A DNA stretch of 52,481 bases from assembly GCF_018448905.1 (NCBI RefSeq), contig NZ_RCWA01000023.1:1-52481 (forward strand). Reading direction: 5' to 3'. Within the stretch, counting starts at the first letter, position 1, and each line of letters starts with the position of its first letter. The stretch comes from Photorhabdus heterorhabditis (GTDB lineage Bacteria > Pseudomonadota > Gammaproteobacteria > Enterobacterales > Enterobacteriaceae). Below, in pieces: positions 23,527-51,741 of this stretch. The notes beneath the pieces are model-generated. The model had not been told where the DNA came from. It ran no database searches and saw nothing but the letters and a program-made list of their open reading frames with translations. A program made the translations under genes and the position numbers.

Positions 23527-23528
23527 AT

Positions 23529-24824
23529 CTATTTCCCTATGTCCTGTTCCGTAAGACTTGATTTAATGCCATAGAAAGGCGTAAACATCCATTGGTACAA
23601 ATAGCGTTTTTCCAAAAATACCGTAGTTTGCGCACGCATATTACTACTAATTTCCATGGAATTGCCTTGGTAGATAAAGCGATTTTCATCAAGTGTTGCA
23701 GTGACTTTATAGTAGGATTGATTAGTCATCGTATTGGATATAATAGGAGAATTACTGTAGCTTTTTAGTTCCTGATATGAAGCAGCCACATTAGAAATTG
23801 AAATAATATGTCCACCAAACTGACCAAATTTTTCATAAGGAAAAGCATCATAGCGTATATTGACTCGATCACCAATCTTAACATAGGGAATACTATTATT
23901 TGGCAGCCAGAATACTAAATAATAAAGTCGATCTTTTCCTGGACTGAGTTGTGCTAAACTATCACCTGTGTTAATCATTTGTCCCGGCGTTACACTTAAG
24001 GATTCCACCAATCCATCATAAGGAGCCGTGACTAACATAGCTTCATTTAGATCGATATTAGCCAGTTTTATTTCCAATTCTGAACGTTGATATTGATATT
24101 CAGATATTCTGTTATCAAATTCAACAGCCGTGGTAATCATATCACTCTTCAATTTTTCCACTTGAAGTTGCGCTTGTATTTTTTGACTATAAATATTTTG
24201 ATATATACCTTGTTGCTGATAGAAAAGAGATTTTTGATTTGCTAATTGATCTTTATTAATAAGCCCTTTATGTAGATATTTTGTGTAGGAATTGGAATAT
24301 TTTTCCATTGTAGCCAATCCCTCTTGGGCATCTCTAAGCAAATTTTCTACCGTAGAAATCACCCTAAGATACTCATCAATTTGTTGCTGAATATTCTTAA
24401 GTGTTTGGTTTTTATCTTCCTCTATTTTGGCAATAATTTGCTCAGTCAACATAATTTGACGATTTATCGATAAACGAGACTTTATGCTGACATTGCCTGA
24501 ATCACTAATTTTGCTGGAATCAATTTTATAAAGCTTTGTTCCCCTCGATACAAAATCACCAGGCTTAATATATTGATCTGTAACTATTCCCTGTGTTGTG
24601 GAAAACAAAGTTATCGTTTTAGGCGAAGTAATCACCTCTCCTACTACGTTAATGCGCCGGGTATAACTACCGAAAAATATCAGAAAAATTATGGATAACG
24701 CGATAACGGTAGAGAAGAAAAATACTAATGGTGCAGGAATGACAGAAATAATGTGGGCTTGACCAAGCCATGAGTTTTTATGATTTCTAACGGAATAATT
24801 ATAAGGAGTAATATTGTGTTTCAT
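23529..24824 (-). CDS. HlyD/CvaA-type membrane fusion (periplasmic adaptor) protein
   Basis: 431 aa. One N-terminal transmembrane helix (~residues 30-52, PAPLVFFFSTVIALSIIF), then a lipoyl-like half motif (GIVTDQYIKPGDFVSRGTKLYKID), a long coiled-coil (~115-245), the second lipoyl half (APYDGLVESLSVTPGQMINTGD, landmarks only) and a beta-barrel domain. Family knowledge: these adaptors link an inner-membrane ABC exporter to TolC for type I or microcin-like export. Starts the two-gene exporter operon, divergent from the dynobactin genes ~690 bp away. Export of that peptide is possible but not shown. Confidence 0.88.
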   Translation of the reverse strand: MKHNITPYNYSVRNHKNSWLGQAHIISVIPAPLVFFFSTVIALSIIFLIFFGSYTRRINVVGEVITSPKTITLFSTTQGIVTDQYIKPGDFVSRGTKLYKIDSSKISDSGNVSIKSRLSINRQIMLTEQIIAKIEEDKNQTLKNIQQQIDEYLRVISTVENLLRDAQEGLATMEKYSNSYTKYLHKGLINKDQLANQKSLFYQQQGIYQNIYSQKIQAQLQVEKLKSDMITTAVEFDNRISEYQYQRSELEIKLANIDLNEAMLVTAPYDGLVESLSVTPGQMINTGDSLAQLSPGKDRLYYLVFWLPNNSIPYVKIGDRVNIRYDAFPYEKFGQFGGHIISISNVAASYQELKSYSNSPIISNTMTNQSYYKVTATLDENRFIYQGNSMEISSNMRAQTTVFLEKRYLYQWMFTPFYGIKSSLTEQDIGK

Positions 24825-24886
24825 ATAGTTAATCCATGTTAATCGGTTAGTCGTCAGTAATAGTCAAGATCCTCTGATGTTCAGCA

Positions 24887-25020
24887 TATACCCGTCATCT
24901 TTCAAGTTGCCTCTTTGTTGTCTGCACTCGCTCACCCCGGTCACAGAGTTATCTGTTATCTATGCTCCCGGGGATTCACTCCCTTGCGGTCGCGACGCAT
25001 CTTGAAATCCATAGGGTATA
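24887..25020. repeat. ERIC-type repeat (134 bp)
   Basis: Complete ends (tataccc...gggtata). It sits between the exporter operon and the dynobactin genes. Confidence 0.88.
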
Positions 25021-25344
25021 GTGCAATTACCCATACAAATATTATGTGTATTATTACTACACATTTTCATAAAAAAAATCAATCGCTTTTGGAATGGGTT
25101 TGCTATAACTGGAGCCGATCAGGAAAGTAGAGATAAAAATATGTTAAAGGCTAAACTATTTCATACTTTCCATCATCTCCCCAAATACAGTGAAATTTTG
25201 TGAGACAAAACACATTTTAAAAAATAACCATTGCATTCACAAAAAAAGCGCGTATTTATAATAACCACAATATTTATAAGGTTTATCCGGGTTTAGTACT
25301 AGATATTTTAGTCCTACAGTTTATATTTATATAGATATGCCCGT

Positions 25345-25494
25345 ATGACTCCAGCAGTACGTCAAGAAATATAACATAGTCGAACGAGCATAAATGAACT
25401 GATGATATTCAGTACAATATCAACCCGAAAACCATCGCAAAGTGGAAAGAATATCTATACCCATGATGCACCGATGGGGCCATAACAATGTATA
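25345..25494 (+). pseudogene. Transposase relic (N-terminal HTH part)
   Basis: The frame reads MTPAVRQEI, a stop, then HSRTSINELM; after a frameshift it continues IQYNINPKTIAKWKE and THDAPMGP. This is the N-terminal helix-turn-helix pattern of IS481/IS3-like transposases (RQEI-x-SR-x-S-x-x-ELM-x-xY-x-I-NPKTIAKWKKR). At least one stop and one frameshift inactivate it, and the rest of the element is missing. It lies just 20 bp upstream of the dynobactin radical SAM gene. Confidence 0.7.
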
Positions 25495-25514
25495 TGTAGC
25501 CTGAGGGACAGATC

Positions 25515-26711
25515 ATGAATTTCATCAATGTAATAAAGCCTACTCATGTTTGTAATTTATCTTGTACTTATTGCTACAATGAAGATATCCGCAAGCCAAT
25601 TATGACAGAAGAGACTTTGTCCAGAGTCATTTTCGAAACTTTTTCTTACGCAAATCATTTAGGATGTTTTTCCGGTGTTGAATTTATATGGCATGGTGGC
25701 GAACCATTTATACCAGGCATAAAATTCTACGAAAACGTTTTACGGTTACAAGAAAAATATTCAAATGGAATCTCATATATCAATTCCATACAAACTAACG
25801 GAACACTTCTAACTAATAAATGGGTTAGTTTTCTTTCAAATAATGATTTTCTTGTTAGTCTTTCTATTGATGGCCCGAAAGCATTACATGACGCAAACAG
25901 AATAGATAAAAAGGGAAATGGCAGTTTTGATCGTGTGATGTCTGGAATAAGAAAATTAAACCAAGCAAACCAAAAGTTTGGTAGCGTACTTGTAATTAAT
26001 AAACAAAACAAAGAACATGTTGAAAATATATATGATTTTATGGTATCAGAAAAAATAGCATTCAATGTTATACCAATGACAAAGTCCGGTAGTGCTGTAT
26101 GCTCTTATGAAGATTTAGGTTTAGAAGCAGACGAATATTATGAACCTTGGATTAAGTTATACGATTTATGGTTTGATGCTGAAAATGATAGATATACTTA
26201 TATCTCTGATTTCGTCAGGAAAACACAAGCTATAATGGCAGGAAGGGCAGCTGACTGCATTGGGATGTCACAGTGCGGTAATGCAAACTGTTCCACAGAT
26301 CCCCTTGGTGATATTTACCCTTGTGCCAGCTTATCAGGTCATCCAAATCTTATATATGGCAATATCAATAAAAGCTCGCTTTTAGAAATAATGAATTCTG
26401 ACGTTGCTAAAGAATACCGGACAAGAAAACCAACTAAATACTGTAACGCATGCAAATGGCAACATGTTTGCCATGGCGGATGTCAAGCAAGATCATATAA
26501 ATTCTTTTCGGGTAATTATCATGAGAGAGATTATTATTGCCCTAGTTTATATAAAATATATGAACATATTGAGAAGAAACTTGCCACTAAAGGTATAAAG
26601 GCAAGAGAGCCCTATCCTAATCATATGGATGATGGATTAGGAGGGACACCTGCTTATATAGAATCATATATAAGCAATAAGCACCATCCTATAGAAATAA
26701 CTTTATTGTAA
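25515..26711 (+). CDS. Radical SAM/SPASM peptide maturase of the dynobactin locus
   Basis: 398 aa. RBS gaggga precedes the ATG. The canonical radical SAM cluster motif is CNLSCTYC (Cys13, Cys17, Cys20), followed by WHGGEPF and TNGTLL; the C-terminal SPASM-type region is Cys-rich (CGNANCSTDPLGDIYPC, YCNACKWQHVCHGGC, YYCPS). Family knowledge: such maturases bind auxiliary Fe-S clusters and, in the darobactin/dynobactin group, join side chains across short motifs. For dynobactin A the links are Trp1 C6 to Asn4 Cbeta and His6 imidazole N to Tyr8 Cbeta. The precursor gene follows by 14 bp, so the pair is one operon. The assignment rests on the neighbouring core peptide. Confidence 0.93.
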   Translation: MNFINVIKPTHVCNLSCTYCYNEDIRKPIMTEETLSRVIFETFSYANHLGCFSGVEFIWHGGEPFIPGIKFYENVLRLQEKYSNGISYINSIQTNGTLLTNKWVSFLSNNDFLVSLSIDGPKALHDANRIDKKGNGSFDRVMSGIRKLNQANQKFGSVLVINKQNKEHVENIYDFMVSEKIAFNVIPMTKSGSAVCSYEDLGLEADEYYEPWIKLYDLWFDAENDRYTYISDFVRKTQAIMAGRAADCIGMSQCGNANCSTDPLGDIYPCASLSGHPNLIYGNINKSSLLEIMNSDVAKEYRTRKPTKYCNACKWQHVCHGGCQARSYKFFSGNYHERDYYCPSLYKIYEHIEKKLATKGIKAREPYPNHMDDGLGGTPAYIESYISNKHHPIEITLL

Positions 26712-26725
26712 ATAGGAGAATAGAA

Positions 26726-26905
26726 ATGAAAAAGCTTAACAAAGCTAGCCAAAATAAAACCTGGAACAAAGCGCTTATAGATTGTGTCGGAAAAAAATCA
26801 AACTCACTACAAGGAAAACCTATTCGTTCTAATAAAGTTGAAAAGCTTGTGCAATCAGCAACTATTCCTTCATGGAACAGCAATGTACACTCATATAGAT
26901 TTTAA
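26726..26905 (+). CDS. dynA: Dynobactin A precursor peptide
   Basis: 59 aa with a strong RBS (aggag, 8 nt). Lys/Asn-rich leader of 49 residues (MKKLNKASQNKTWNKAL...), then WNSNVHSYRF at residues 50-59, directly followed by TAA. This decapeptide is, from memory, exactly the sequence of dynobactin A, a BamA-binding antibiotic from Photorhabdus found after darobactin. Trp50, Asn53, His55 and Tyr57 are the residues to be cross-linked. No follower peptide, so only N-terminal cleavage (Ser49/Trp50) is needed; no peptidase gene is adjacent. The symbol is by analogy with darA and should be confirmed. Confidence 0.93.
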   Translation: MKKLNKASQNKTWNKALIDCVGKKSNSLQGKPIRSNKVEKLVQSATIPSWNSNVHSYRF

Positions 26906-29052: not shown

Positions 29053-29988
29053 ATGAAAAACGCCTCAACAATGCGAGCGCCAGTGAAACTACCACCAATG
29101 CCATCTGAAAGCATAGCCTTAAAAACCTATAAATCGGTCAACATGGCACGATCCCATCTGGAAGGGGACGAACTCCTTTTTACTGACAATGATGGCTTCG
29201 AACGAGCCATTCGGCATGGTTTTTTCCTCCTGGAAGCGCCATCCTATATGAATTTTGAATACGGAGAGCGATTTGCATACCATTTCTTTGAGCCCGCCAC
29301 AGAAGGGGAGCTTCGGCCTTATACGGGATTCAAATCGTGCACTTTTTCTAACAATTACGAAGGTTATTCCGACAAAAAACATGATCAATGGGAAAGTTTC
29401 CGCATCACGCGGAAACACTGGAACCTCATTCCAACCGAAGTCGCAACACTTGGCCGCCAGATGGCACACGTAGGTATATGCATATTACGCTCAGTGTTAA
29501 ATTATGTTGGCATTCCTCGCAGTGATTGGGAATTAGTCACAGGCGGCTGTTCAGAAGGGCTGGGAAACCAGAATATGGGGTTTAATCACTACCGATCAGA
29601 GAAAGCCACCCGTGGCTCCAAGTTTCATCGAGATGTAGGATGGGTAACAGTCCTAAGAACAACTGAGCGGGGTCTTTTGGCCTATATAGATGGTGAGCTT
29701 TTGGCTATCGATCCAGTTCCTGGCTACCTAATTATTAACTTTGGTAGTTCAATCGAAGTGCTGACAGAAAATTTAATCAAGAATGTTCGGGCTAGTATAC
29801 ATGGCGTTGTTCGTACCGAACGAAACGGGCAACGCGATAGAGTGTCATATACAACGTCTTTAGTCAGCAATCTGACTGGTAATATCTACAAATATGGTCC
29901 CAAAGGCCCAATCAGCGTTCAATCTGTCAAAGAATTTGTTGCTCAGGAAGTCACCCGGGCATACGATGATGATGATGATACTTTGTAG
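29053..29988 (+). CDS. Fe(II)/2-oxoglutarate-dependent oxygenase (IPNS-like), copy 1
   Basis: 311 aa. The C-terminal half has the double-stranded beta-helix pattern: HRD (SKFHRDVGWVTVL) as the HxD pair, the distal His in VRASIHGVVR, and RDRVSY, the R-x-S type 2OG-binding motif typical of isopenicillin-N-synthase-like oxygenases. The N-terminal half has an IPNS-like feel (AIRHGFFLLEAPSYM). Substrate unknown. It ends with an Asp-rich tail (YDDDDDTL). It is noticeably more GC-rich than its AT-rich flanks, which points to a separate origin. A paralogue lies 1.07 kb downstream and a relic at 39160. Confidence 0.8.
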   Translation: MKNASTMRAPVKLPPMPSESIALKTYKSVNMARSHLEGDELLFTDNDGFERAIRHGFFLLEAPSYMNFEYGERFAYHFFEPATEGELRPYTGFKSCTFSNNYEGYSDKKHDQWESFRITRKHWNLIPTEVATLGRQMAHVGICILRSVLNYVGIPRSDWELVTGGCSEGLGNQNMGFNHYRSEKATRGSKFHRDVGWVTVLRTTERGLLAYIDGELLAIDPVPGYLIINFGSSIEVLTENLIKNVRASIHGVVRTERNGQRDRVSYTTSLVSNLTGNIYKYGPKGPISVQSVKEFVAQEVTRAYDDDDDTL

Positions 29989-31056: not shown

Positions 31057-31992
31057 ATGAAAACCTCATCAACAATGCGATCTACAATTAAACTACCACC
31101 AATGCCATCTGAAATAATCGCTGCAAAAACTTATAAATCAGCAAACATAGTACGCTCCCATTTAGAAGGAGACGACCTTATTTTTACTGATGATGATGGC
31201 TTTAACCAGGCTATTCGACATGGTTTTTTCCTTCTGAAGGTTCCATCATATATGGATTTTGAACACGGTGATCGATTTGCATACCACTTCTTTGAACCCG
31301 CCACAGAAGGAGAACTTCGTCCCTATACAGGATTCAAATCATGTACTTTTTCCAACGGCTACGAAGGTTATTTCGATAGAAAACATGATCAATGGGAAAA
31401 TTTCTATCTCAAACGACAACACTGGGACTTAATTCCATCCGAGGTCGCAAAACTTGGTCGCCAAATGGCACACATAGGTATATGTATATTACGCTCAGTG
31501 TTAAATCATGTTGGTATTCCCCGTAGTGACTGGGAATTAGTCACTTGTGGTCTTTCCGAAGGACTTGGACACCAGATGTTTGGGTTTAATCATTACCGCT
31601 CAGAGAAAGCTACCCGAGGCTCCAAATTTCATCGAGATCTAGGATGGATAACTATCCTAAGAACAACTGAACGTGGGCTGTTGGCTTATATAGATGATGA
31701 GCTTTTAGCAATCGATCCGGTTCCTGGTTACCTGATCATTAACTTTGGTAGTTCAATCGAAGTGCTTACAGGAGACTTAACGACAAAAGTTCGGGCTAAT
31801 GTACATGGCGTTGTTCGTACAGAACGAAATGGACAGCGTGATAGAATGTCATATGTGATGCTTTTAGATAATGATGAGGCTGGCGATATCTACAAATATA
31901 GTTCAAAAGGCCCGATCAAAGTTCAATCCGTCAAAGACTTTGCCATCCAAGAAGTTAATCGGGCATACGATAATGATGATAGCGTTTTATAA
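31057..31992 (+). CDS. Fe(II)/2-oxoglutarate-dependent oxygenase (IPNS-like), copy 2
   Basis: 311 aa, the same length as copy 1 and highly similar throughout. The same metal ligands (HRD in SKFHRDLGW; His in VRANVHGVVR) and RDRMSY motif are present, so both look active. Differences cluster near the C-terminus and in the middle (GGCSEGLGNQNMG against CGLSEGLGHQMFG), which could alter substrate choice. More AT-rich at third positions than copy 1. The ERIC at 32035 lies between this gene and its terminator. Confidence 0.8.
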   Translation: MKTSSTMRSTIKLPPMPSEIIAAKTYKSANIVRSHLEGDDLIFTDDDGFNQAIRHGFFLLKVPSYMDFEHGDRFAYHFFEPATEGELRPYTGFKSCTFSNGYEGYFDRKHDQWENFYLKRQHWDLIPSEVAKLGRQMAHIGICILRSVLNHVGIPRSDWELVTCGLSEGLGHQMFGFNHYRSEKATRGSKFHRDLGWITILRTTERGLLAYIDDELLAIDPVPGYLIINFGSSIEVLTGDLTTKVRANVHGVVRTERNGQRDRMSYVMLLDNDEAGDIYKYSSKGPIKVQSVKDFAIQEVNRAYDNDDSVL

Positions 31993-32564: not shown

Positions 32565-33749
32565 TCATGACGTGGATTTACGATTTATTAAAATAACCAC
32601 AATAATGGTTGAAAAAATACCTATAAATGTTGCAAAGAAAACAATGCTTGCGGAAAAAAAATAAGATATTGTGGAACCTATCAAAGGGCCAATAAACATG
32701 GAAAAACCAACAGAAATTGACGTTAAACCAAATATTTTAGCCGAGTTATCATTAGTTGCAAATTTCTGCATATAAATGGTAACAATAATATTATTCATAG
32801 ACGATCCTATTCCTATTATTACCATTGCTAAAAACATAAGAAATAAATTGATTTCATCAGGAAACGAATCGTTAAATTGATTTGTTATTCCTATTAAAAG
32901 ATACCCCAACCCCCACAAAAAGAATGAAAACAACATAATATTTAAAGATATGTTAATCTTATATTTTCCAAATACCAAACCAATTAAAACACCTGAAACA
33001 CCAGAAAGACACATGGCAAAACTATAATGGCTTCCATTGAATCCCTGCTCCATAAAGCTAAGAGCTATTAAGCTATCTGATAAATAGCCAAAACAAGTTA
33101 AAGTGGAAATAACAATAAATGAAAACAATATTTTATTATCTTTCATTATATTAAAGTAATTAATTAGCGATATTTTGTTTTTTTTGCGGTTAACATCAAT
33201 CAAAGGTTCTGAAACAAAAACATATAAGACTGCTGAAATAAAATAAAGCATTGATATTAAAATAAGAATCTGTTTTGTTGAGTAGTAGATAAGAATAAAA
33301 CCTAAAAATAACGGGGCTAACATTTTGTATATTTGAAATAAAACTTGCCAATAACTAAAGTTTTTTTCAAACTTTTTGGTTGATATGTTTTTTAATATTA
33401 AAAAATTAGAAGGTCCTAAAAATAAACGAAGGATGTTTTTAATAAAAGAATAAAGAATATATATATTAATGTCATCAATATTGTATTGAAAAGTGGTAAT
33501 AACACCACAAAGTAACGAAATGATAATAATGTACTTTTTGGGTTTTATATTTTCATCTACAAATGACGAAACATAGGGCGTTAGAAATAGTAACGATACA
33601 GCATATGAAATTGTATATAAAGATGAGTATATCGCTCCACCGTTCCAGTGATATGTGATTAATGTGAATGATATTATCATCTCCAAATACAAGGTGAAAG
33701 AATTTCCTGAGGAGGCTAATATTAATTTGCAAAATTGTCTATCCATCAT
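32565..33749 (-). CDS. MFS transporter, probable exporter of the 32.5-38.8 kb cluster
   Basis: 394 aa, very hydrophobic, ~11-12 membrane helices in two halves with a charged central loop (VNRKKNKISLIN) near residue 195. Sequence is AT-driven (Ile/Phe/Asn/Lys-rich), so similarity is hard to judge by eye, but topology and length fit the major facilitator superfamily (MFS_1/MFS_3 exporter-like). It is the last gene of the minus-strand cluster, 46 bp after the thymidylate-kinase-like gene. By position it probably exports the cluster's product or gives self-resistance. Confidence 0.75.
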   Translation of the reverse strand: MMDRQFCKLILASSGNSFTLYLEMIISFTLITYHWNGGAIYSSLYTISYAVSLLFLTPYVSSFVDENIKPKKYIIIISLLCGVITTFQYNIDDINIYILYSFIKNILRLFLGPSNFLILKNISTKKFEKNFSYWQVLFQIYKMLAPLFLGFILIYYSTKQILILISMLYFISAVLYVFVSEPLIDVNRKKNKISLINYFNIMKDNKILFSFIVISTLTCFGYLSDSLIALSFMEQGFNGSHYSFAMCLSGVSGVLIGLVFGKYKINISLNIMLFSFFLWGLGYLLIGITNQFNDSFPDEINLFLMFLAMVIIGIGSSMNNIIVTIYMQKFATNDNSAKIFGLTSISVGFSMFIGPLIGSTISYFFSASIVFFATFIGIFSTIIVVILINRKSTS

Positions 33750-33795
33750 TTTTCTCCAACTAAAATAGCCTCATTAAATATAGAGATTACAGTAA

Positions 33796-34467
33796 TTAAA
33801 TTTTTTTTGGCATTTCCACTTGAATAATATCCACTATTAATTTAATTACTGCATCTTTAGTTAAGGTATCAGTATCAATAATTTTCCAAGTGTCATCATA
33901 AAATGTCTGGCATTGATTAAAAACGTGTTTTTGATATTCTATAAAATCATATTTTTCATTTATCTCTAACTTTCCAGACTCACTAGATTTTAATATTTTC
34001 TTCCTTTTTTCAGCAATATTTGGAGGAACATCAAGATATATCACCATGTCTGGTTTTGTGTTTATCGATAGAACCGACTTACTTAATTTTGCTAATTCCG
34101 TGGATTTCAGTAAGAATCTTGCTAAATATTTATAATACCAACTATCACATATAATAATTTTACCTTGCAATAAACAAGGTTGAATAATTAAACTATCTAA
34201 AACAGCAAACCATGATGCTATCAATAAAATCCAATGCCGGTCACCAAGTTCACCCAATGGAGCAGAAATATCATAATCCCAAAGGACATCTCGTATTTTT
34301 CCCATATGATACATACTATACCCAGATGGTAGTAAAGGATAATTCTTATCTAAAAAAACAATATTATTATAATCTAGAGACAAAATATCATAAACTTCGC
34401 GTGAAATTGTTGATTTACCTGCACCATCATTTCCTTCAAAAGCTATAAATAAACCGCGTTTAATCAT
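33796..34467 (-). CDS. Thymidylate-kinase-like P-loop nucleoside/nucleotide kinase
   Basis: 223 aa from ATG 34467 (MIKRGLFIAFEG); a longer frame upstream overlaps the radical SAM gene and is not needed. Walker A GNDGAGKST fits thymidylate kinases (usually GxDGAGKST), GDRHWILL holds a DR-type Asp-Arg, and CDSWYYKYLARF replaces the usual DRYxxSxxAYQ motif. KPDMVIYLDVPPNIAEKR is the typical late strand plus LID region. Length fits. It overlaps the radical SAM stop by 8 bp, indicating coupled translation. Divergent core motif suggests a substrate other than dTMP, perhaps a modified nucleotide; the housekeeping tmk would be elsewhere. Confidence 0.75.
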   Translation of the reverse strand: MIKRGLFIAFEGNDGAGKSTISREVYDILSLDYNNIVFLDKNYPLLPSGYSMYHMGKIRDVLWDYDISAPLGELGDRHWILLIASWFAVLDSLIIQPCLLQGKIIICDSWYYKYLARFLLKSTELAKLSKSVLSINTKPDMVIYLDVPPNIAEKRKKILKSSESGKLEINEKYDFIEYQKHVFNQCQTFYDDTWKIIDTDTLTKDAVIKLIVDIIQVEMPKKI

Positions 34468-35593
34468 TTCTTTTTTCCCCGTAATACGCTTCAGTATCAA
34501 GTGAATTTCTACCACTACCGATAATAAATGGTTTGAATCCATATTTTTGATATAATTTATGCATCTCAGCATACGTTTTATAAATATCTTCAAAAATAGG
34601 TCTAGGGTGATTTTGATATTCAGAACCATGATCGGGATGAAAGACCGCTATTGCTGGAACTATGCCATTTTTTGAAAAAAAACCCATTCCTTGTACTAAA
34701 TCATTTAAAGGTTCTAATCCCGCTACAAACCCAACATAAACATTGCCTTCACCTAACTCTGAAACAGCAGTCAGGTATGCTTCTAATAGATTATCTCTCC
34801 CGTAGTCCTGTGATTTACCAGGACATATCTGATCAAATAATTTAGGATTAAATATTTCTAAACTAATAGCCCAGCTATCAACGAATTCAGAAATTCCCTT
34901 TATTTTATTTAGATCTTTAGGGGGCATTGATATTAGATGGCTGTTAAGGTTGTTTTTTTCACAAAAAGGTTTTAGCGAAATTAATAATTGTTTGTGCATT
35001 TCAAAACCAAGATCATAATTACGAGTTGTCCCACCATTGATGAGTATTCTTTTATATCTATTAATGTTGTTAGCTTCTATTATATTCATAACTTCAATTA
35101 CTTTTGACGGTCTAATAGACTTTTTATGATCTGATAAACTATTTCTAGCTTCACCTAATGAACAAAATTTACACTGACGACCATCATTAAAATAATAACA
35201 ATGCCCTGGCGAGAAAAAACCCAAAGTTGTATCAACGTACACCGTGACGTATTCTTCTACTCTACTGCCATCTAAAAGTTCTATACCATATATGTCTGGT
35301 TTTATGGGAAATATAACTTTAAATAAAATGTTGTGGGCTTTTATATAAAAATTCCCATTTTTATATATTAAATCATAATCAGAATTTTCATTATAGTTAC
35401 AGGCAATAATTGTACCATCGTCTAAAATAACTTCTTGAGGTACAGAATATGTTGTTTCTAATTTAGAGCTATCACTTGTTCCATACGCCCTTCTTTTTGG
35501 AATAAAATTTCGTTTACTATATTCATATATCACGTTTTTATCATATTTTAATCCAGAACATAACACTCTAATTTTTAATTCTATAGTATTCAT
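34460..35593 (-). CDS. Radical SAM protein with a non-canonical Cx8Cx2C motif
   Basis: 377 aa. Cys132, Cys141 and Cys144 (GHCYYFNDGRQCKFCSLGEA) form a Cx8Cx2C cluster motif instead of CxxxCxxC. RILINGGTT and the later VDSWAISLEIFNP, VYVGFVAGLEPL segments fit the TIM-barrel strands of radical SAM enzymes with the GGE-like and beta-6 regions. The N-terminal ~120 residues (IPKRRAYGTSDSS...) are an extra domain I do not recognise. No SPASM Cys cluster is visible. It lies 2 bp after the inositol-phosphatase-like gene and overlaps the kinase gene. Reaction unknown; could modify a sugar or nucleoside, or the peptide. Confidence 0.75.
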   Translation of the reverse strand: MNTIELKIRVLCSGLKYDKNVIYEYSKRNFIPKRRAYGTSDSSKLETTYSVPQEVILDDGTIIACNYNENSDYDLIYKNGNFYIKAHNILFKVIFPIKPDIYGIELLDGSRVEEYVTVYVDTTLGFFSPGHCYYFNDGRQCKFCSLGEARNSLSDHKKSIRPSKVIEVMNIIEANNINRYKRILINGGTTRNYDLGFEMHKQLLISLKPFCEKNNLNSHLISMPPKDLNKIKGISEFVDSWAISLEIFNPKLFDQICPGKSQDYGRDNLLEAYLTAVSELGEGNVYVGFVAGLEPLNDLVQGMGFFSKNGIVPAIAVFHPDHGSEYQNHPRPIFEDIYKTYAEMHKLYQKYGFKPFIIGSGRNSLDTEAYYGEKRND

Positions 35594-35595
35594 TT

Positions 35596-36441
35596 TTATA
35601 TCCTCATTAATTCTAATATTGTATCTCCTGCACTTTTAGAAGAAACAGCTATGATTGCTTTTTTCTCAAAAAATAAAGAATCTGTAGGTGATAGAGTATT
35701 ATAACTATTTCCATCACGAGTCATTATATATCCCCCTGATTCCTCAAGGATTAGTTTAGCGGCTGCTATATCGACACAACGTTCGTGACCCATAAGTGAT
35801 AAATCGAAGAATGCATGTAAAACGCCACTAGCGATCAAGCATATATCTAAACTTGAACAAGATGAGATTCTTACTTTATTTGCCTCATTAATAATTTTAT
35901 TCTGAACCTCTGTATACTGATTATTTCTCGCCCTATGAAATGATACTCTCAAATCGTTTAGTTGAAATGAGGGGCTTGTATATATTCGCTTGCTGGTATA
36001 TATGCTTTGTATATAAGAACCTTCTCCCAATGATGCTTTATATATAATGTCTCTTGGAATATCATATACCCAGCCCATAATGTATCTATCATTCTTGTAA
36101 ACAGCTATTGATGTAGTATAGGCAGGATAACCCATAAGCAAGTTATGAGTACCATCAATAGGATCAATTAGTAAGGAAACTTTATCTTTAATATTTACAG
36201 ATTGTGATTCAGAATCGTCTTCTGAAATAATGGTGACCTTGAGTTCTGATTTATCCAAGTGCTCGTAAATTATATTATTTAAAATGATATCTATTTCTAC
36301 CGTTTCGCCACAGTATTTGTTATCATATCCGATATGAATAGTGGAAAGCTTAGCAAGCCATATTCTACGAATCTCTTCTCTGAGTTTGTGAAAGTGTATT
36401 TCTAAATAATTACTAACTTCATTATTGAATATATACCTCAT
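35596..36441 (-). CDS. Inositol monophosphatase/CysQ-family phosphatase
   Basis: 281 aa. Metal-binding motifs of the family are clear: ISEDD (in place of GEE), LIDPIDGTHNLLMGYPAYTTSIA (motif DPIDGTxN) and HERCVDIAAAKLILEESGG (D-x-AA-x-LILEEAGG). Family knowledge: Mg-dependent hydrolysis of small phosphate esters such as inositol phosphate, 3'-phosphoadenosine 5'-phosphate or sugar phosphates. It overlaps the upstream PRTase-like gene by 4 bp and is 2 bp from the radical SAM gene, so it is a tightly coupled part of the cluster. Likely dephosphorylates a pathway intermediate. Confidence 0.85.
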   Translation of the reverse strand: MRYIFNNEVSNYLEIHFHKLREEIRRIWLAKLSTIHIGYDNKYCGETVEIDIILNNIIYEHLDKSELKVTIISEDDSESQSVNIKDKVSLLIDPIDGTHNLLMGYPAYTTSIAVYKNDRYIMGWVYDIPRDIIYKASLGEGSYIQSIYTSKRIYTSPSFQLNDLRVSFHRARNNQYTEVQNKIINEANKVRISSCSSLDICLIASGVLHAFFDLSLMGHERCVDIAAAKLILEESGGYIMTRDGNSYNTLSPTDSLFFEKKAIIAVSSKSAGDTILELMRI

Positions 36442-37313
36442 GTGACATGTTCTCCCAAATAAATGAGTTTTTTATGCCAATCCTCGGCTGTTAAATATAT
36501 TATTGTCTTTTTTACATCAAATAATCTACCTGCATAAATTGCATAATCTGACGATGAAAATGCCCCTAATGTTTTTGGAGAAAATGATACTTTATATATT
36601 TTCGATTTGTACCCAACTAAATTTACAAGCATCTTGTAAGCTAATTGAATACTGCCTCCTGTGTAGGATTTATCAATTATCAGCCAACTTTCGTTTTCTT
36701 TTCCTTTAAATTTTGGGTATATTTCATTGAATAATTTTCTTTTATGCAGTAAACCACTATCATTTTCACGATGTATTTCGCAGAAATATATATTTTTGTC
36801 TAGTGTTTTTGCATGATAAGATAACGCAAGGGGGATTCCTCCCGAAATAATAAATAATTTGTTTTTAGCTATCGTAAAAACCTTATCCCACAGGTAATGA
36901 TCTTGGTAAATGTTTTCTATGTTTAATGTAGGGCAAGTTTCCAATGAAAATAAATTAATACTTTTACTGTATTCGTAACGAAACTCATCATATAAATCAA
37001 TTGTTTTTTGTGGGGCATCTTTTAATTTTACTGATTTATCAAGTCCTCTTGAGTATATTAATTCTAATTTGTTTGTTATTCCTTTATTTATTATTGTGGA
37101 TAGGATGTTTTCTTTATTTATTTTTAACTCACATAGTTCAGTACCATATAAGGCTAATTCAGGATCTAAACCATATCCATCTACTAAGTTACCTATGTCA
37201 GAGGTAAGTTTATTTATATTTAAATAATCAACTAGTTCATCCCAAATATGTATTATTTCAGTACTTGATAATCTTGATATGGGTGATGACAAATTACTTA
37301 AGTCCATTAACAT
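36438..37313 (-). CDS. Phosphoribosyltransferase-like protein
   Basis: 291 aa. SWLIIDKSYTGGSIQLAYKML resembles the PRPP-binding loop of type I phosphoribosyltransferases (strand, acidic residue, then TGGS/T), and KLFIISGGIPLALSYHAKTL the preceding phosphate-binding loop region. The N-terminal ~130 residues (DLSNLSSPISRL..., DGYGLDPELALYG) are unrecognised. The second acidic residue of the usual DD pair is Lys here. The start codon is weak (agaagaa before ATG), and the same frame is open upstream back to a stop at 37353, with a 35-codon ORF beyond it. Could form a glycosidic or ribosyl bond in the pathway, or be a PRTase-fold regulator. Confidence 0.6.
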   Translation of the reverse strand: MLMDLSNLSSPISRLSSTEIIHIWDELVDYLNINKLTSDIGNLVDGYGLDPELALYGTELCELKINKENILSTIINKGITNKLELIYSRGLDKSVKLKDAPQKTIDLYDEFRYEYSKSINLFSLETCPTLNIENIYQDHYLWDKVFTIAKNKLFIISGGIPLALSYHAKTLDKNIYFCEIHRENDSGLLHKRKLFNEIYPKFKGKENESWLIIDKSYTGGSIQLAYKMLVNLVGYKSKIYKVSFSPKTLGAFSSSDYAIYAGRLFDVKKTIIYLTAEDWHKKLIYLGEHVT

Positions 37314-37352
37314 TTCTTCTGCATCGCGTAGATGAAATATTGTTTCTTGTAA

Positions 37353-37460
37353 TTAGCATCCATTGTTTATTTGGTTCAAATATTCTTGAATATTATTAGT
37401 TTTAGTTCCCTTTAATGTTCTCCAGCAGTGGTGCTTACTTATAATCTTTATTCTTTCCAT
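37353..37460 (-). CDS. 35-residue ORF in frame with the PRTase-like gene, cut by one stop
   Basis: ATG at 37460 has a good RBS (gggga, 6 nt). It reads MERIKIISKHHCWRTLKG...QINNGC and ends at TAA (37355-37353). After that stop the same frame stays open (LQETIFHLRDAEE) straight into the PRTase-like ATG at 37313. Either this is a separate small protein, or the PRTase-like protein once had a ~49-residue extension and a single nonsense change split it. The ERIC at 37479 is just upstream. Confidence 0.45.
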   Translation of the reverse strand: MERIKIISKHHCWRTLKGTKTNNIQEYLNQINNGC

Positions 37461-37478
37461 GGCATTCCCCATATGTAC

Positions 37479-37560
37479 TATACCCTTCATCTTTCAAGTT
37501 GCTGCTTTGTTGGCTGCGTTCTCTTGCCGCCGCGCTGCAATTTGAAATCTATTGGGTATA
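37479..37560. repeat. Short ERIC-type repeat (82 bp, central deletion)
   Basis: Both ends are intact (tataccc...attgggtata), but the centre, including the ccccggtcac to ctcccggggattcg part, is missing. It is inserted between the nucleotidyltransferase and PRTase-like genes of the cluster. Confidence 0.88.
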
Positions 37561-37561
37561 T

Positions 37562-38602
37562 TCATGTTAATGCCCCTAGTCTTTCGAATTCCGATATATA
37601 AAAATTAGCATTTGCATTAGTTATTCCAAGTTTTTTTAATTCTGAAACAACTTCAAACTCTGTTTTTTCATTATCTATTACTAACCAAACTTTATATGCA
37701 TCCAAATTAATTTCACATAATGCTTTTTTTGCGAAAAGTATTAACTTCCCATCCTTGTACAAGACTCTGTACCATAAATTTTTTACTATTGGTTTATTAT
37801 CTTCATCTGATAATGAAATGTCAGATGTATTAGCTATTCTTTTTTTTGCAAAAGATACATTGTAACTAAAAATATCTTTTCCTTGACAATAGTCTAAAGT
37901 TAATTGCCACATTTTAGCAACTGAATTTATGTAATCAATTGTTGAAACATCATTGATTACATTAAATTTCGAACAAACCATCAAGTATATAGATGTTATT
38001 GGATGGTCTTTTCCAAATACCTTCATTGCATTTTGATAGCGCCACTTTATTAAAGTGGATGTATTTTTACTCGAAGCCAAAATATAATCCATTGCTGAAT
38101 TAACTGTTCGTTCAAAGTTGAATGCCGCTGATATCAGGTCATTATTTAAAATATTCCCAATCCCATCGGAAAAACACTTTTCTCCAAAGTTTTTTGCTTT
38201 GGTCTTAAGTATTTCACATAATTTAGTTTTATTTATACCTCCTTTTAACTTGTTAAAATTATTTGATTTTATAATCGATTCCCCTGTTAGTATCCTATGA
38301 GATAAATGTAATTTATACCAATCGGAATTTGAGCTTCCATTGTTGATTATCTTCATGATTTCTTTTATCTCTTTTAAAGAGATTATTGTCACTTCTAACA
38401 TTCCTATATCGGATGGTATAAATATCTCTTCGCATTCTATTTCTCGTTCTCCCTCCAATATAACATAGACATCATAATCAGATTTTGGTGTTGAAAACCC
38501 TTCAATGACTGAGCCTGACAAGTAACAAGTATACAGATCAGTATCATTAAATTTTTTATTTATTATTACTGTTATTTCCCTTTTTACGTTAATAATGTCC
38601 AT
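37562..38602 (-). CDS. Nucleotidyltransferase with a C-terminal PqqD-like domain
   Basis: 346 aa. N-terminal nucleotidyltransferase (NTP_transf_2/MNT) motif LSGSVIEGFSTPKSDYDVYVI: GS, G and the SDxD metal-binding pair, at residues ~29-48. Middle region (~150-260) helical, HEPN/KNTase-like. The C-terminal ~65 residues (LDAYKVWLVIDNEKTEFEVVSELKKLG...YISEFERLGAL, landmarks only) match the PqqD-like winged-helix pattern found in RiPP recognition elements, ending in FxxxLxxxGAL. The pairing suggests nucleotidyl transfer guided by binding of a peptide. It begins 38 bp after the hairpin that follows the 30-codon peptide ORF. Confidence 0.7.
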   Translation of the reverse strand: MDIINVKREITVIINKKFNDTDLYTCYLSGSVIEGFSTPKSDYDVYVILEGEREIECEEIFIPSDIGMLEVTIISLKEIKEIMKIINNGSSNSDWYKLHLSHRILTGESIIKSNNFNKLKGGINKTKLCEILKTKAKNFGEKCFSDGIGNILNNDLISAAFNFERTVNSAMDYILASSKNTSTLIKWRYQNAMKVFGKDHPITSIYLMVCSKFNVINDVSTIDYINSVAKMWQLTLDYCQGKDIFSYNVSFAKKRIANTSDISLSDEDNKPIVKNLWYRVLYKDGKLILFAKKALCEINLDAYKVWLVIDNEKTEFEVVSELKKLGITNANANFYISEFERLGALT

Positions 38603-38640
38603 GTTTTATGTTTTACCTTATAAATGAAAGGACAAATAAA

Positions 38641-38670
38641 GGAATAAAGGTTATGACATACCTTTATTCC
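38641..38670 (-). terminator. Intrinsic terminator/attenuator between the 30-codon ORF and the nucleotidyltransferase
   Basis: On the minus strand GGAATAAAGG and CCTTTATTCC form a perfect 10-bp stem, followed by TTTATTTG. It lies 8 bp past the small ORF stop and 38 bp before the next gene. In RiPP operons such a hairpin commonly makes precursor mRNA more abundant than enzyme mRNA. Confidence 0.75.
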
Positions 38671-38678
38671 TTATTCTA

Positions 38679-38771
38679 TTAATTAGGGGATGAGCTCATT
38701 AAACCATTATCATAATTTAATTTTTCATCATCAGTTAGCGGCCTAAATGCCTGTGCTATTATCACATTCAT
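38679..38771 (-). CDS. 30-residue peptide ORF, candidate precursor for the adjacent cluster
   Basis: ATG at 38771 with an excellent RBS (aggag, 8 nt). Reads MNVIIAQAFRPLTDDEKLNY then DNGLMSSSPN and stop. It is first in the minus-strand cluster, followed by an intrinsic terminator and the nucleotidyltransferase-PqqD-like gene, the layout of a RiPP precursor ahead of its enzymes. No double-glycine or Cys-rich core. It ends in Asn, as does microcin C's peptide, but no MccB-like adenylating enzyme is present. I know of no family. Confidence 0.55.
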   Translation of the reverse strand: MNVIIAQAFRPLTDDEKLNYDNGLMSSSPN

Positions 38772-39159
38772 TATATGCTCCTATAGGATTTTTTTAAAAA
38801 TATACCAAATCAAAATTTAATTCAGCATAGTAATAATAACAACTTTTTTTATTTCAGTTATGTAATAGTTAAATGTTTGTGAATTACATCACAACTAAAA
38901 ATATAACCCATTGAAAAAACTTAAATTATTTATTGCTTTTTGCGATAAAAAGTGTATCAAGCTTGGTATGCTTTCCAATAGGTTAATTTGACGTAATCAT
39001 CTGAATTTATTGTTATTATTTTTTCGGTCATGTATTCAATGCGGTGTTCATCATGTAAGATTCTGTCATTTATTAAAAGAATTCTTGATGGCCAAAATAC
39101 ACGTTTTTATTATCCTTTCAGGTCACCGTATTCTTCGTTGGCGTAACCGGAATTCATGC
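38772..39159. other. AT-rich region upstream of the cluster
   Basis: Nearly 390 bp without a convincing ORF. It should carry the leftward promoter for the peptide ORF at 38771. A frame of 82 codons crosses its right half but has no RBS and ends in oxygenase debris. Confidence 0.4.
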
Positions 39160-39258
39160 TGTCATCCACGCTTCCCCTCTTACAGTAACCGTCGAAACAA
39201 CAGCATTTGCTACTCGGAACTTGAGCGGGTATACGATAATGATAGTGACGCTTTGTAG
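39160..39258 (+). pseudogene. Relic of a third oxygenase copy (C-terminal end)
   Basis: In one frame PLTVTVETTAFATRN matches PIKVQSVKDFAIQEVN of copy 2; after a frameshift ELERVYDNDSDAL and stop match EVNRAYDNDDSVL. The DNA past the stop (agatattttctgcacaataaat) matches the sequence after copy 2. Nothing upstream of ~39150 is recognisable as oxygenase. Confidence 0.65.
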
Positions 39259-39384
39259 ATATTTTCTGCACAATAAATTGGTGTTATAACGCAGATTTGA
39301 GCTGACAGATACCTTTATATCAGTGTCTGTCAGGTTAAATCGGCAGGTGAACCTCGATCCCTCTCGGGCTCACAAATCCTTAGA

Positions 39385-39510
39385 TATACCTGTTATCTTT
39401 CAAGCTGCTGCTTTGTTGGCTGCATCACTCACCCCAGTCACATCGTTATCTATGCTCCCGGGGATTCGCTCCCTTGCCACCGCGCTGCAATTTGAAATCT
39501 ATTGGGTATA
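39385..39510. repeat. ERIC-type repeat (126 bp) providing the vapC stop
   Basis: Complete element (tatacct...gggtata). Its right end encodes the last residues and stop of the leftward VapC gene. Confidence 0.9.
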
Positions 39511-39927
39511 TGAGAATGGATTTTGAATAACCAAGCTGTCTTCCAACATCTGCCCGTGATTCATGTCTTCACTATAGAGCGCCCGACAACCTGCGATGAC
39601 CGCGGCCGCCACAATACAAGAATCGTAGAATGACAAGTGATAACGCTCTGCAATAAACCTAGCTCGGTCATGAACTTCAACCGTAAGAGGCACGATTTTG
39701 CAAAAACTACGTACAATATCGAGGAACTCCGCTATCTCTTCCCAACTCATCTTAAGTTTACGCACACACACGTGCGCCACTTCATTGAGCACCTGCACAC
39801 TGATGACCGGATTCGCCTTCAGCAACGCTTCGGCACTATCGGCCTTGAGCACATCTTGGGACAGCAGGTACAGCACCACATTGCTGTCGATGAAACCGCA
39901 AGACTTAGCCCCTGTCATTCGCTTCAT
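39499..39927 (-). CDS. vapC: VapC-family PIN-domain toxin
   Basis: 142 aa from ATG 39927 (MKRMTGAKSCGFIDSN), overlapping the antitoxin stop; a start 3 codons later is possible. A longer upstream frame only overlaps vapB and is rejected. PIN acidic residues: FIDSNVVLYLL, LNEVAHV, LSFYDSCIVAAA and YSEDMNHGQ. Family knowledge: PIN toxins are Mg-dependent RNases that cut tRNA or rRNA when VapB is degraded. The last residues (SYTQ) and stop come from the ERIC at 39385, so the natural C-terminus may have been replaced. GC-richer than its flanks. Confidence 0.9.
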   Translation of the reverse strand: MKRMTGAKSCGFIDSNVVLYLLSQDVLKADSAEALLKANPVISVQVLNEVAHVCVRKLKMSWEEIAEFLDIVRSFCKIVPLTVEVHDRARFIAERYHLSFYDSCIVAAAVIAGCRALYSEDMNHGQMLEDSLVIQNPFSYTQ

Positions 39928-40138
39928 CTCTGCTGAACTTGAAATCTGCCGGCAACTTACCGCGGAATGTCCGAAGACGCTCCAACAACACCTCAGATCC
40001 AGGCTTCTTGCATACCGCAAAGGTACGCGGATCATCCACTACAATCTCAATATCATCACCTTCACGCAATTCCAGAATTTCAACTAAGCTAGCCGGCAGA
40101 CGTATGGCAAGGCTGTTACCCCATTTTGCTACTTGCAT
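39905..40138 (-). CDS. vapB: AbrB/SpoVT-type antitoxin (VapB)
   Basis: 77 aa. Perfect Shine-Dalgarno (aaggagg, 7 nt). The N-terminal ~45 residues are an AbrB/MazE swapped-hairpin DNA-binding domain (MQVAKWGNSLAIRLPASLVE, then ELREGDDIEIVV); the C-terminal part (LLERLRTFRGKLPADFKFSRDEAN) should bind and cover the toxin. Overlaps vapC by 23 bp with coupled translation. Upstream inverted repeat gatataca/tgtatatc is the likely autoregulatory operator. Confidence 0.9.
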   Translation of the reverse strand: MQVAKWGNSLAIRLPASLVEILELREGDDIEIVVDDPRTFAVCKKPGSEVLLERLRTFRGKLPADFKFSRDEANDRG

Positions 40139-50175: not shown

Positions 50176-50898
50176 ATGACTATTTTATCACTAGAAATAG
50201 AGTTGTATTTTGACTGGAAAGAATCGTTGACTCCCCAGATAGCACTCACTGACTTGTATGAGATAACACAACAGATTGATCAACTCTTCGGGCGCCCAAA
50301 AACCTGGTATTTGACAGGTCATACCCGTAAGGAAGCATTGGAACACCTTGTTTTTGAAGAAGGCCACCCGACAGAAAAAGCGGTTCAAGAGTTTGAAAAA
50401 AGCTATAGAAAAAATTTCCCTTTTTTAGGAAAGAAAATCTGGGATGGTGAAGTTGATGACCTTATCTGTTCCTTATTTTATGAGAACTACCGTAGAGACA
50501 AGTTAGGACAAACTAATATAACAATAAGACTCAATATTGACGAAAAAGAGTTTCAGTTTTCACGGCTGATTAATTTTATTACCTTTTTAGTTCTCAGCCG
50601 TAATGCTCCCTACATTATGGTAGAAACTAACGGTTATACCTTGAAGCAAAATCAGGTATTCCCCGACAGATTAAGTGCAGGGTGGATGATTTATTTACCC
50701 TTTGTTATAGACCCCGCATTATTACCAATGGCAGATGAAATCTTGCCTATTACCAATGATAAAGAACAATTGGGGACATTAATTATCACCAAACAAGGTA
50801 TTTTTGACGGCGAAAATCAGGATGATATTGATAAAGCCAATGATATTGAAATTCAGTTGTTGAATTTAGGATTACTGCCATTAATTACTGAGGTTTAA
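50176..50898 (+). CDS. Imm52-like immunity protein, copy 1
   Basis: 240 aa, 13 bp after the toxin. Landmarks: LTDLYEITQQIDQLFG, WYLTGHTRKEALEH, NAPYIMVETNGYTLKQNQVFPDRLSAGWMIYLP (in part). The WYLTG motif and overall layout match the Imm52 family, typically paired with Tox-REase-5 (TsiT in Pseudomonas). No signal peptide, as expected for cytosolic protection against a DNase. Being next to the toxin, it is the likely cognate antidote. Confidence 0.78.
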   Translation: MTILSLEIELYFDWKESLTPQIALTDLYEITQQIDQLFGRPKTWYLTGHTRKEALEHLVFEEGHPTEKAVQEFEKSYRKNFPFLGKKIWDGEVDDLICSLFYENYRRDKLGQTNITIRLNIDEKEFQFSRLINFITFLVLSRNAPYIMVETNGYTLKQNQVFPDRLSAGWMIYLPFVIDPALLPMADEILPITNDKEQLGTLIITKQGIFDGENQDDIDKANDIEIQLLNLGLLPLITEV

Positions 50899-50901
50899 TC
50901 G

Positions 50902-50919
50902 CTGCCCTTATCAGGGCAG
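50902..50919 (+). terminator. Small hairpin between immunity copies 1 and 2
   Basis: ctgccc and gggcag stem with a 6-nt loop, 4 bp past the stop. Repeated after copy 2 (51685-51702). No T-run, so probably a processing or attenuation element. Confidence 0.4.
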
Positions 50920-50958
50920 TACTTTACACCCCTTTATTTGGATAGTACGAGGTAATGC

Positions 50959-51681: not shown

Positions 51682-51741
51682 TCGCTGCCCTTCTCAGGGC
51701 GGTATTTCACACCCCTTTACTCAGATAATGCGAGACAACAA

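What the first reader, a model, noticed from the sequence alone, without database searches (positions are those of the whole stretch)
32565..38771. Unrecognised biosynthetic cluster combining peptide, nucleotide and radical chemistry
A tightly packed minus-strand set: 30-codon ORF with strong RBS, attenuator-like terminator, nucleotidyltransferase with PqqD-like end, PRTase-like, IMPase-like, unusual radical SAM, thymidylate-kinase-like and MFS proteins. Most junctions overlap or are within 2-50 bp, implying one pathway. PRTase + phosphatase + kinase + nucleotidyltransferase points to building a nucleoside- or sugar-phosphate unit; the PqqD-like domain and leading mini-ORF suggest it may be joined to a peptide. 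I know no described system with this set.
Basis: partly seen in the sequence, partly recalled or inferred. Interest (0 to 1): 0.85.

Follow-up and report, generated by a model that had tools for sequence, protein, structure and literature searches.

The report
Undescribed nucleotide-type antimicrobial gene cluster
A compact, horizontally acquired set of genes in an insect-associated bacterium probably builds a nucleotide-like small molecule and, in this lineage only, appears to work on a tiny 30-residue peptide; no described system with this gene set was found, and the copy in this genome looks partly broken.

Summary
Pairwise dN/dS is low for every gene and the cluster is much poorer in G+C than its surroundings, so it looks like a horizontally moving biosynthetic cluster. 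The peptide idea gains support: the 30-codon ORF is conserved and occurs only where the nucleotidyltransferase carries a (weakly supported) PqqD-like C-terminus; 14 of 14 Pseudomonas lack both by the tests used. The nucleotidyltransferase resembles kanamycin nucleotidyltransferase. It is not the 4'-thiothymidine cluster of Photorhabdus, nor microcin C-like. Best reading: a nucleoside/sugar-phosphate antimetabolite pathway whose Photorhabdus branch acts on, or attaches its nucleotide to, a ribosomal peptide. The peptide step and the product are inferred, not shown.

The parts
38679..38771 (-). 30-codon ORF, putative precursor or scaffold peptide; conserved FRxL and (Y/F)(D/N)NG
   Evidence: present in 8 of the 9 Photorhabdus genomes that keep any part of the cluster (GTG start in 3 of these, altered end in G001) and in G394; pairwise dN/dS 0.07-0.35 in 6 comparisons
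38639..38672 (-). 13-pair hairpin with a short, imperfect T-rich tail between the small ORF and the nucleotidyltransferase (terminator/attenuator-like)
   Evidence: G394 has an unrelated hairpin at the same place by eye, which the terminator scan did not call
37562..38602 (-). Nucleotidyltransferase: polymerase-beta/ANT-like NTase domain + helical domain + PqqD-like C-terminus
37562..37795 (-). PqqD-like (RRE-like) C-terminal domain of the nucleotidyltransferase
   Evidence: weak; no Pfam/NCBIfam hit
37479..37561 (-). ~80-bp copy of a dispersed repeat between the nucleotidyltransferase and the PRTase-like gene; absent at this place in four Photorhabdus relatives
   Evidence: limits read by eye
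37353..37490 (-). N-terminal part of the PRTase-like gene, ending at an in-frame stop
36438..37313 (-). Remainder of the PRTase-like gene (same frame, from an internal ATG); PRPP-loop-like WLIIDKSYTGGS
35596..36441 (-). Inositol-monophosphatase-family phosphatase
34460..35593 (-). Variant radical SAM enzyme (NF045502), Cys motif CX8CX2C
33796..34467 (-). Thymidylate-kinase-like P-loop kinase; start overlaps the end of the radical SAM gene by 8 bases
32565..33749 (-). MFS exporter

Best explanation
A horizontally transferred natural-product cluster. Core (shared with Pseudomonas): a PRTase-like enzyme, an IMPase-family phosphatase, a CX8CX2C radical SAM enzyme and a TMK-like kinase make a phosphorylated nucleoside- or sugar-type unit; an ANT-like nucleotidyltransferase transfers a nucleotide; an exporter (MFS here, MATE in most of the Pseudomonas) removes the product. 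In the Photorhabdus/G394 branch the nucleotidyltransferase carries a PqqD-like peptide-binding end which, I infer, holds the 30-residue peptide by its conserved FRxL stretch so that the nucleotide unit is built on or attached to that peptide. Shown: gene conservation, order, low dN/dS, families, co-occurrence of peptide and PqqD-like end. Inferred: order of steps, substrate, peptide role, antimicrobial purpose. The window's own copy probably does not run to completion because the PRTase-like gene is interrupted.
For: Six large genes in order in G394, 43-64% identical, with a small ORF in front; core + NTase in 14 of 14 Pseudomonas genomes found with it, MATE in 12 of 14, one of these split by a frame break; pairwise dN/dS 0.07-0.35 over all genes, small ORF included, among Photorhabdus; cluster G+C 29.6% vs 39.2/39.8% flanks, 32.8 vs 55.6 in G394, 41-44 vs 60-63 in the three Pseudomonas loci examined; the small ORF of G010 resembles that of G394, a score 4 of 5000 shuffles reach; NTase C-termini of 5 of 5 peptide-bearing loci tested (four of them near-identical Photorhabdus) outrank all 400 shuffles on a PqqD profile, while 14 Pseudomonas NTases give at most 1.4 bits; FRxL resembles, with F in first place, the W/Y/LxxP/L/I motif bound by many RREs (section 7 of PMC12710340); kanamycin nucleotidyltransferase-like fold.
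Against: No PqqD hit in curated libraries; hhalign probability only 37, over 41 columns. PRTase assignment weak, its structure model unusable. The NTase fold match has low TM-scores. In the peptide comparison one unrelated ORF of 169 in the same locus scores 37, above the candidate's 36. No recognised protease is in the cluster. The Pseudomonas version works without such a peptide, so the peptide could be regulatory. No product is known.
Confidence: 0.45

Rival explanations
1. Small-molecule pathway without any peptide in the product: the 30-codon ORF and hairpin are a regulatory leader (attenuator), and the C-terminal domain of the nucleotidyltransferase is an unrelated winged-helix-like extension.
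For: Pseudomonas runs the core with no similar small ORF; a terminator-like hairpin follows the ORF; PqqD support is weak.
Against: The small ORF has no run of one amino acid that an attenuator leader would sense; its protein sequence, not just its reading frame, is conserved (dN/dS 0.07-0.35), also to a modest degree between genera; it co-occurs with the extra domain.
Confidence: 0.3
2. The nucleotidyltransferase is self-resistance (it inactivates the product as ANT enzymes inactivate aminoglycosides) and the other four core enzymes make the product.
For: Closest folds are aminoglycoside nucleotidyltransferases; a resistance gene inside a small nucleoside cluster has precedent in thmC (section 7 of PMC12691670).
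Against: It is the first large gene beside the peptide and is the one with the peptide-binding-like end; the gene kept open in all 9 Photorhabdus genomes with remnants is the kinase, whereas the nucleotidyltransferase gave no match in the G001 and G004 loci and is frame-broken in G005.
Confidence: 0.15
3. It is an anti-phage defence or toxin-antitoxin set built round an MNT-like nucleotidyltransferase.
For: Sub-threshold similarity to MntA (19 bits against a cut-off of 60) and to PADLOC candidate PDC-S09 (E 0.011-0.015).
Against: No PADLOC model matches PRT, IMP, rSAM or MFS, and those on the kinase cover only the P-loop; exporters and a biosynthetic enzyme set fit a secreted metabolite.
Confidence: 0.05

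Closest known systems
4'-thiothymidine cluster thmA-C of Photorhabdus asymbiotica (PMC12691670)
   Same: Photorhabdus; radical SAM next to a P-loop kinase; nucleoside-type antibiotic; small cluster with changing neighbours
   Different: Three genes (radical SAM, nucleoside kinase, NTPase). The candidate thm locus in DSM 15149 (L160; identified here by gene content, not by locus tag) has no convincing similarity to this cluster (best 22% over 152 aa, E 0.014 in a database of eight sequences, kinase to kinase)
Microcin C-like peptide-nucleotide antibiotics
   Same: Would be a ribosomal peptide joined to a nucleotide, with an MFS exporter (exporter type recalled)
   Different: No ThiF/MccB-type adenylyltransferase among the cluster's Pfam hits; the vast majority of precursors there have 7 residues (start of abstract of PMC6495379 in the search listing), here 30
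Nit1C cluster / MSMEG_0568 radical SAM
   Same: Related radical SAM family (TIGR04043, 63 bits)
   Different: Below that family's cut-off of 303.7; CX9CX2C in the one example read (L175) instead of CX8CX2C; its neighbours are nitrilase etc., none shared
Aminoglycoside nucleotidyltransferases (ANT, kanamycin nucleotidyltransferase)
   Same: NTase domain + helical domain, best PDB matches by Foldseek
   Different: About 12-15% identity and low TM-scores, no ANT family cut-off reached, extra PqqD-like end
Agrobacterium pusense plasmid locus L022
   Same: Radical SAM 29% identical over 97% with the same CX8CX2C spacing, with an MFS gene nearby
   Different: Neighbours are a second radical SAM, NUDIX and GalE; none of the 14 annotated features in the 19 kb is a PRT, IMP, kinase or NTase by name

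Membership tests
RiPP pathway | Short precursor ORF next to the modification genes, conserved with them | tested here: met
   (similarity between genera modest)
RiPP pathway | RRE/PqqD-type leader-binding domain | tested here: inconclusive
   weak profile support, roughly right order of elements in a low-confidence model, no library hit
RiPP pathway | The ribosomal peptide is enzymatically modified | not testable with these tools
   needs biochemistry
Microcin C-like | ThiF-like MccB adenylyltransferase and, typically, a 7-residue precursor | tested here: not met
   precursor 30 residues
4'-thiothymidine (thmA-C) cluster | Homologues of ThmA, ThmB and ThmC | tested here: not met
   against the candidate locus L160; identity of L160 as thmA-C inferred from gene content
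NCBIfam NF045502 variant radical SAM | Score above the curated cut-off of 125 | tested here: met
   257.7 bits; Pseudomonas orthologue in L036 333 bits
MSMEG_0568 family (TIGR04043) | Score above 303.7 | tested here: not met
   63.4 bits; 111.2 for the L036 orthologue
dTMP kinase proper (TIGR00041) | Score above 83.25 | tested here: not met
   55.8 bits; member of the wider Pfam family (51.8 against 27)
Phosphoribosyltransferase | PRPP-loop motif and PRTase fold | tested here: inconclusive
   loop region aligned with a one-residue gap, hhalign P 0.005-0.015 when it is included, 0.12-0.56 otherwise; no Pfam hit; AlphaFold model pLDDT 49.5, Foldseek matches shown are not PRTases
Anti-phage defence systems in PADLOC | Model matches over most of the proteins | tested here: not met

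The most novel reading that the evidence does not exclude
A new class of ribosomal peptide in which an ANT-type nucleotidyltransferase, aimed by a fused RRE at a 30-residue peptide, attaches a radical-SAM-built unusual nucleotide (a second, independent route to peptide-nucleotide compounds beside microcin C); the same nucleotide pathway in Pseudomonas makes the free compound.
Probability: 0.3. Interest if true: 0.85.

Novelty: new variant of a known kind. Interest (0 to 1): 0.6.

Why it matters
It would be an undescribed route to a nucleotide-type natural product with an uncharacterised radical SAM family at its centre. The paired natural versions (with peptide and RRE-like domain in Photorhabdus/G394, without either in Pseudomonas) make the role of the peptide directly testable. 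Nucleoside and peptide-nucleotide antibiotics are few (recalled), and Photorhabdus and Pseudomonas genomes with apparently intact clusters exist.

Tried and rejected
Rejected: identity with the 4'-thiothymidine cluster; microcin C-like (no ThiF); defence system; MSMEG_0568/Nit1C membership. Plasmid or phage origin: no plasmid match to the cluster DNA, the NTase or the PRT; the radical SAM has 427 plasmid matches, all below 60% identity, the best 28.9%; in phages only the radical SAM was searched, one distant hit of 23.8%; no viral contig with the radical SAM or PRT; no E. coli match to 994 bases of the radical SAM gene.

Led nowhere: AlphaFold of the PRTase-like protein (pLDDT 49.5) and its Foldseek search (best E 9e-3, mostly methyltransferases); PDB sequence searches with the PRT, NTase and radical SAM alignments (no significant match); a peptide ORF upstream of the Pseudomonas NTase (none conserved by eye; best score to the G010 peptide 21 among 14 genomes).

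Limits: the whole-collection scan with the radical SAM used only two short peptide patterns, so more distant clusters can have been missed. Genome surveys were samples, own genome counted: PRT in 1 of 369 class genomes (with the window fragment only) and 1 of 299 phylum genomes, both the window's own; 11 of 348 Pseudomonas; peptide-type NTase in 2 of 198 family genomes and 5 of 392 (2 of 154 genera). The PqqD test used 27 of the 30 fetched PqqD loci (L072, L076, L078 were cut off at contig ends). The PRTase test used 28 of 30 (L096 and L118 not read).
Full report
WHAT IS THERE. The window lies in a Photorhabdus genome: genomes of its own genus share contigs, by length and position, with named P. 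noenieputensis, P. asymbiotica, P. bodei and P. thracensis records. The minus strand from 38771 to 32565 encodes, in order, a 30-codon ORF, a hairpin, a nucleotidyltransferase, a PRTase-like gene, an IMPase-family gene, a variant radical SAM gene, a thymidylate-kinase-like gene and an MFS gene. The kinase most likely starts at 34467, over the end of the radical SAM gene, not at 34629. The hairpin region folds with z -3.8; it is the only terminator-like hairpin called in 38400-39300 (on both strands; shuffles average 0.2), with an imperfect T tail.

The PRTase-like gene is interrupted by an in-frame stop (37353-37355), and about 80 bp of a dispersed repeat (10 copies in the window, 0 expected) lie between it and the nucleotidyltransferase. 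Of 13 genomes of the genus (G000-G012), at least 9 keep some part: 8 by the radical SAM and G009 by the nucleotidyltransferase. Among these nine, all seven genes are open in G007 and G010 only. G000 (window) and G002 carry a stop in the PRTase-like gene, G012 a frameshift in the radical SAM gene, and G001, G004, G005 and G009 have lost whole stretches. G394, another genus of the same family, also has one stop in the PRTase-like gene with its other five large genes open. The three stops lie at different places. The PRTase-like gene is open over the aligned stretch in 14 of 14 Pseudomonas (the one stop reported, in L030, is at its natural end). I cannot explain why this gene is hit repeatedly. 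The kinase frame is open in 9 of 9 Photorhabdus genomes with any remnant.

CONSERVATION. G394 has the six large genes in the same order; radical SAM 64%, PRT 53%, kinase 53%, IMP 51%, NTase 46%, MFS 43%. In front of them, behind a GGAGG site, it has a small ORF, MNKECLVPFRMLDKQESADFNNGRADSLSNGE, against MNVIIAQAFRPLTDDEKLNYDNGLMSSSPN here; tblastn did not pick it up. The similarity is modest: G010 peptide to G394 peptide, score 36, reached by 4 of 5000 shuffles; of 169 short ORFs in the locus one other scores 37. Position, ribosome-binding site and low dN/dS add to it. A scan of the GTDB contig collection with the radical SAM alignment gave 14 loci, 10 of them Pseudomonas; a survey of 348 Pseudomonas genomes gave 11 hits, 7 of which repeat those 10 (same handles or contig lengths), so 14 distinct genomes. 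All 14 have NTase-PRT-IMP-rSAM-kinase in order; a MATE gene sits between NTase and PRT in 12 of 14 (no match in L026 and L029; split by a frame break in L031). In L029 the NTase frame is broken near its start. No upstream short ORF in the 14 resembles the peptide (best score 21) and none looks conserved among them by eye.

SELECTION AND TRANSFER. Pairwise dN/dS against Photorhabdus relatives is 0.07-0.35 for the small ORF (6 comparisons) and 0.09-0.29 for the six others, the PRT from its internal ATG only. Cluster G+C is 29.6% against 39.2/39.8% of the window's two ends; 32.8 against 55.6% in G394; 41-44 against 60-63% in three Pseudomonas loci. With the scattered distribution this indicates horizontal transfer.

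PROTEINS. Nucleotidyltransferase: Foldseek of a low-confidence model (pLDDT 54) puts kanamycin nucleotidyltransferase and other ANT enzymes first, with low TM-scores; the Photorhabdus and Pseudomonas proteins match each other by profile over 215 columns (probability 91, E 1.2e-6), without the C-terminal 80 residues. Those residues are PqqD-like: on a profile of 27 PqqD domains all 5 (window, three Photorhabdus, G394) score 10.5-13.3 bits against at most 8.5 for 400 shuffles; profile-profile P is 3.6e-4 over 41 columns (probability 37), against 0.005 for a window overlapping half of the domain, 0.07 or worse elsewhere in the protein, and 0.03 or worse for ten windows of the Pseudomonas NTase alignment. 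On the same profile the full window NTase scores 9.2 bits and 14 Pseudomonas NTases at most 1.4. This is suggestive, not proof; curated libraries give nothing. PRTase-like: no library hit in Pfam and only insignificant ones in NCBIfam; the only signal is the PRPP-loop region, P 0.005-0.015. Radical SAM: NF045502, with an invariant CX8CX2C in nine orthologues; one MSMEG_0568 protein read has CX9CX2C. Kinase: related to thymidylate kinases of known structure (best E 2.7e-16).

MECHANISM. From the families I infer that the core makes a phosphorylated nucleoside or sugar unit: PRPP-dependent coupling (PRT), dephosphorylation (IMP), a radical rearrangement or insertion (rSAM), rephosphorylation (kinase), nucleotidyl transfer (NTase) and export. 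The order of steps is a guess. In the Photorhabdus/G394 branch the co-occurrence of a conserved short peptide and a peptide-binding-like end on the NTase suggests that the peptide is the carrier or acceptor. Its conserved FRxL resembles, with F in first place, the W/Y/LxxP/L/I motif reported for many RREs (section 7 of PMC12710340, read). [quoted passage not shown] our model shows three strands, then a segment called a fourth strand, then two helices, partly at pLDDT below 50.

RELATION TO KNOWN SYSTEMS. The nearest published Photorhabdus case is 4'-thiothymidine (PMC12691670: abstract, passages and sections 7 and 19 read). Its gene set (radical SAM, AbmG-like kinase, NTPase) fits locus L160 of P. 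asymbiotica DSM 15149 (radical SAM, P-loop kinase, NUDIX), which is unlike this cluster, although that genome also carries this cluster with an interrupted PRTase-like gene. Nine paper searches were made, seven aimed at this set or its parts; no listed paper describes the set, but several lists were cut and most subscription papers are not in that library. Other papers were seen only as listings.

VERDICT. A real, conserved, apparently undescribed biosynthetic cluster; most likely a variant of nucleoside/nucleotide antimetabolite pathways, with a possible peptide-linked branch. Interest 0.6, tempered by the weak domain calls, the unknown product and the interrupted copy in this window.

Noticed in passing
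window 21421-26905: Dynobactin-type cluster: radical SAM 25515-26711 scores 610 bits on NF041298 (cut-off 450); the ORF 26726-26905 ends in WNSNVHSYRF, which I recall as the dynobactin A core; a C39-ABC transporter and an HlyD protein lie beside it.
   Followed up: partly
window, 10 places incl. 37523-37549: Dispersed repeat (core GATTTCAAATTGCAGCGCGGCGGCAAG, up to 3 mismatches), 10 copies in 52 kb against 0 expected; one sits inside the cluster.
   Followed up: partly
window 36438-37490, L024, L014: The PRTase-like gene carries a single, differently placed stop in three clusters whose other large genes are open; none in 14 Pseudomonas. Unexplained.
   Followed up: partly
window 33796-34467 and L015-L021, L174: The kinase frame is open in all 9 Photorhabdus genomes that keep any part of the cluster, even where PRT/IMP/rSAM are deleted; it might protect against the product.
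   Followed up: partly
L160 (P. asymbiotica DSM 15149): Radical SAM, P-loop kinase and NUDIX genes in a row: probably the published 4'-thiothymidine cluster.
   Followed up: partly
L022 (Agrobacterium pusense plasmid): A radical SAM 29% identical to ours with the same Cys spacing, beside a second radical SAM, NUDIX, GalE and MFS: perhaps another pathway of this enzyme family.
   Followed up: no
window 39499-40138: PIN-domain and MazE-like genes (toxin-antitoxin-like pair) about 0.7 kb upstream of the cluster.
   Followed up: no
window 29053-29988 and 31057-31992: Two 311-codon 2OG-Fe(II) oxygenase-like ORFs on the other strand beyond the MFS gene; whether they belong with the cluster was not tested.
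   Followed up: no
window 50176-52464: Three consecutive 240-codon ORFs of equal length and spacing, perhaps a tandem duplication; not compared with each other; no NCBIfam match for the first.
   Followed up: no
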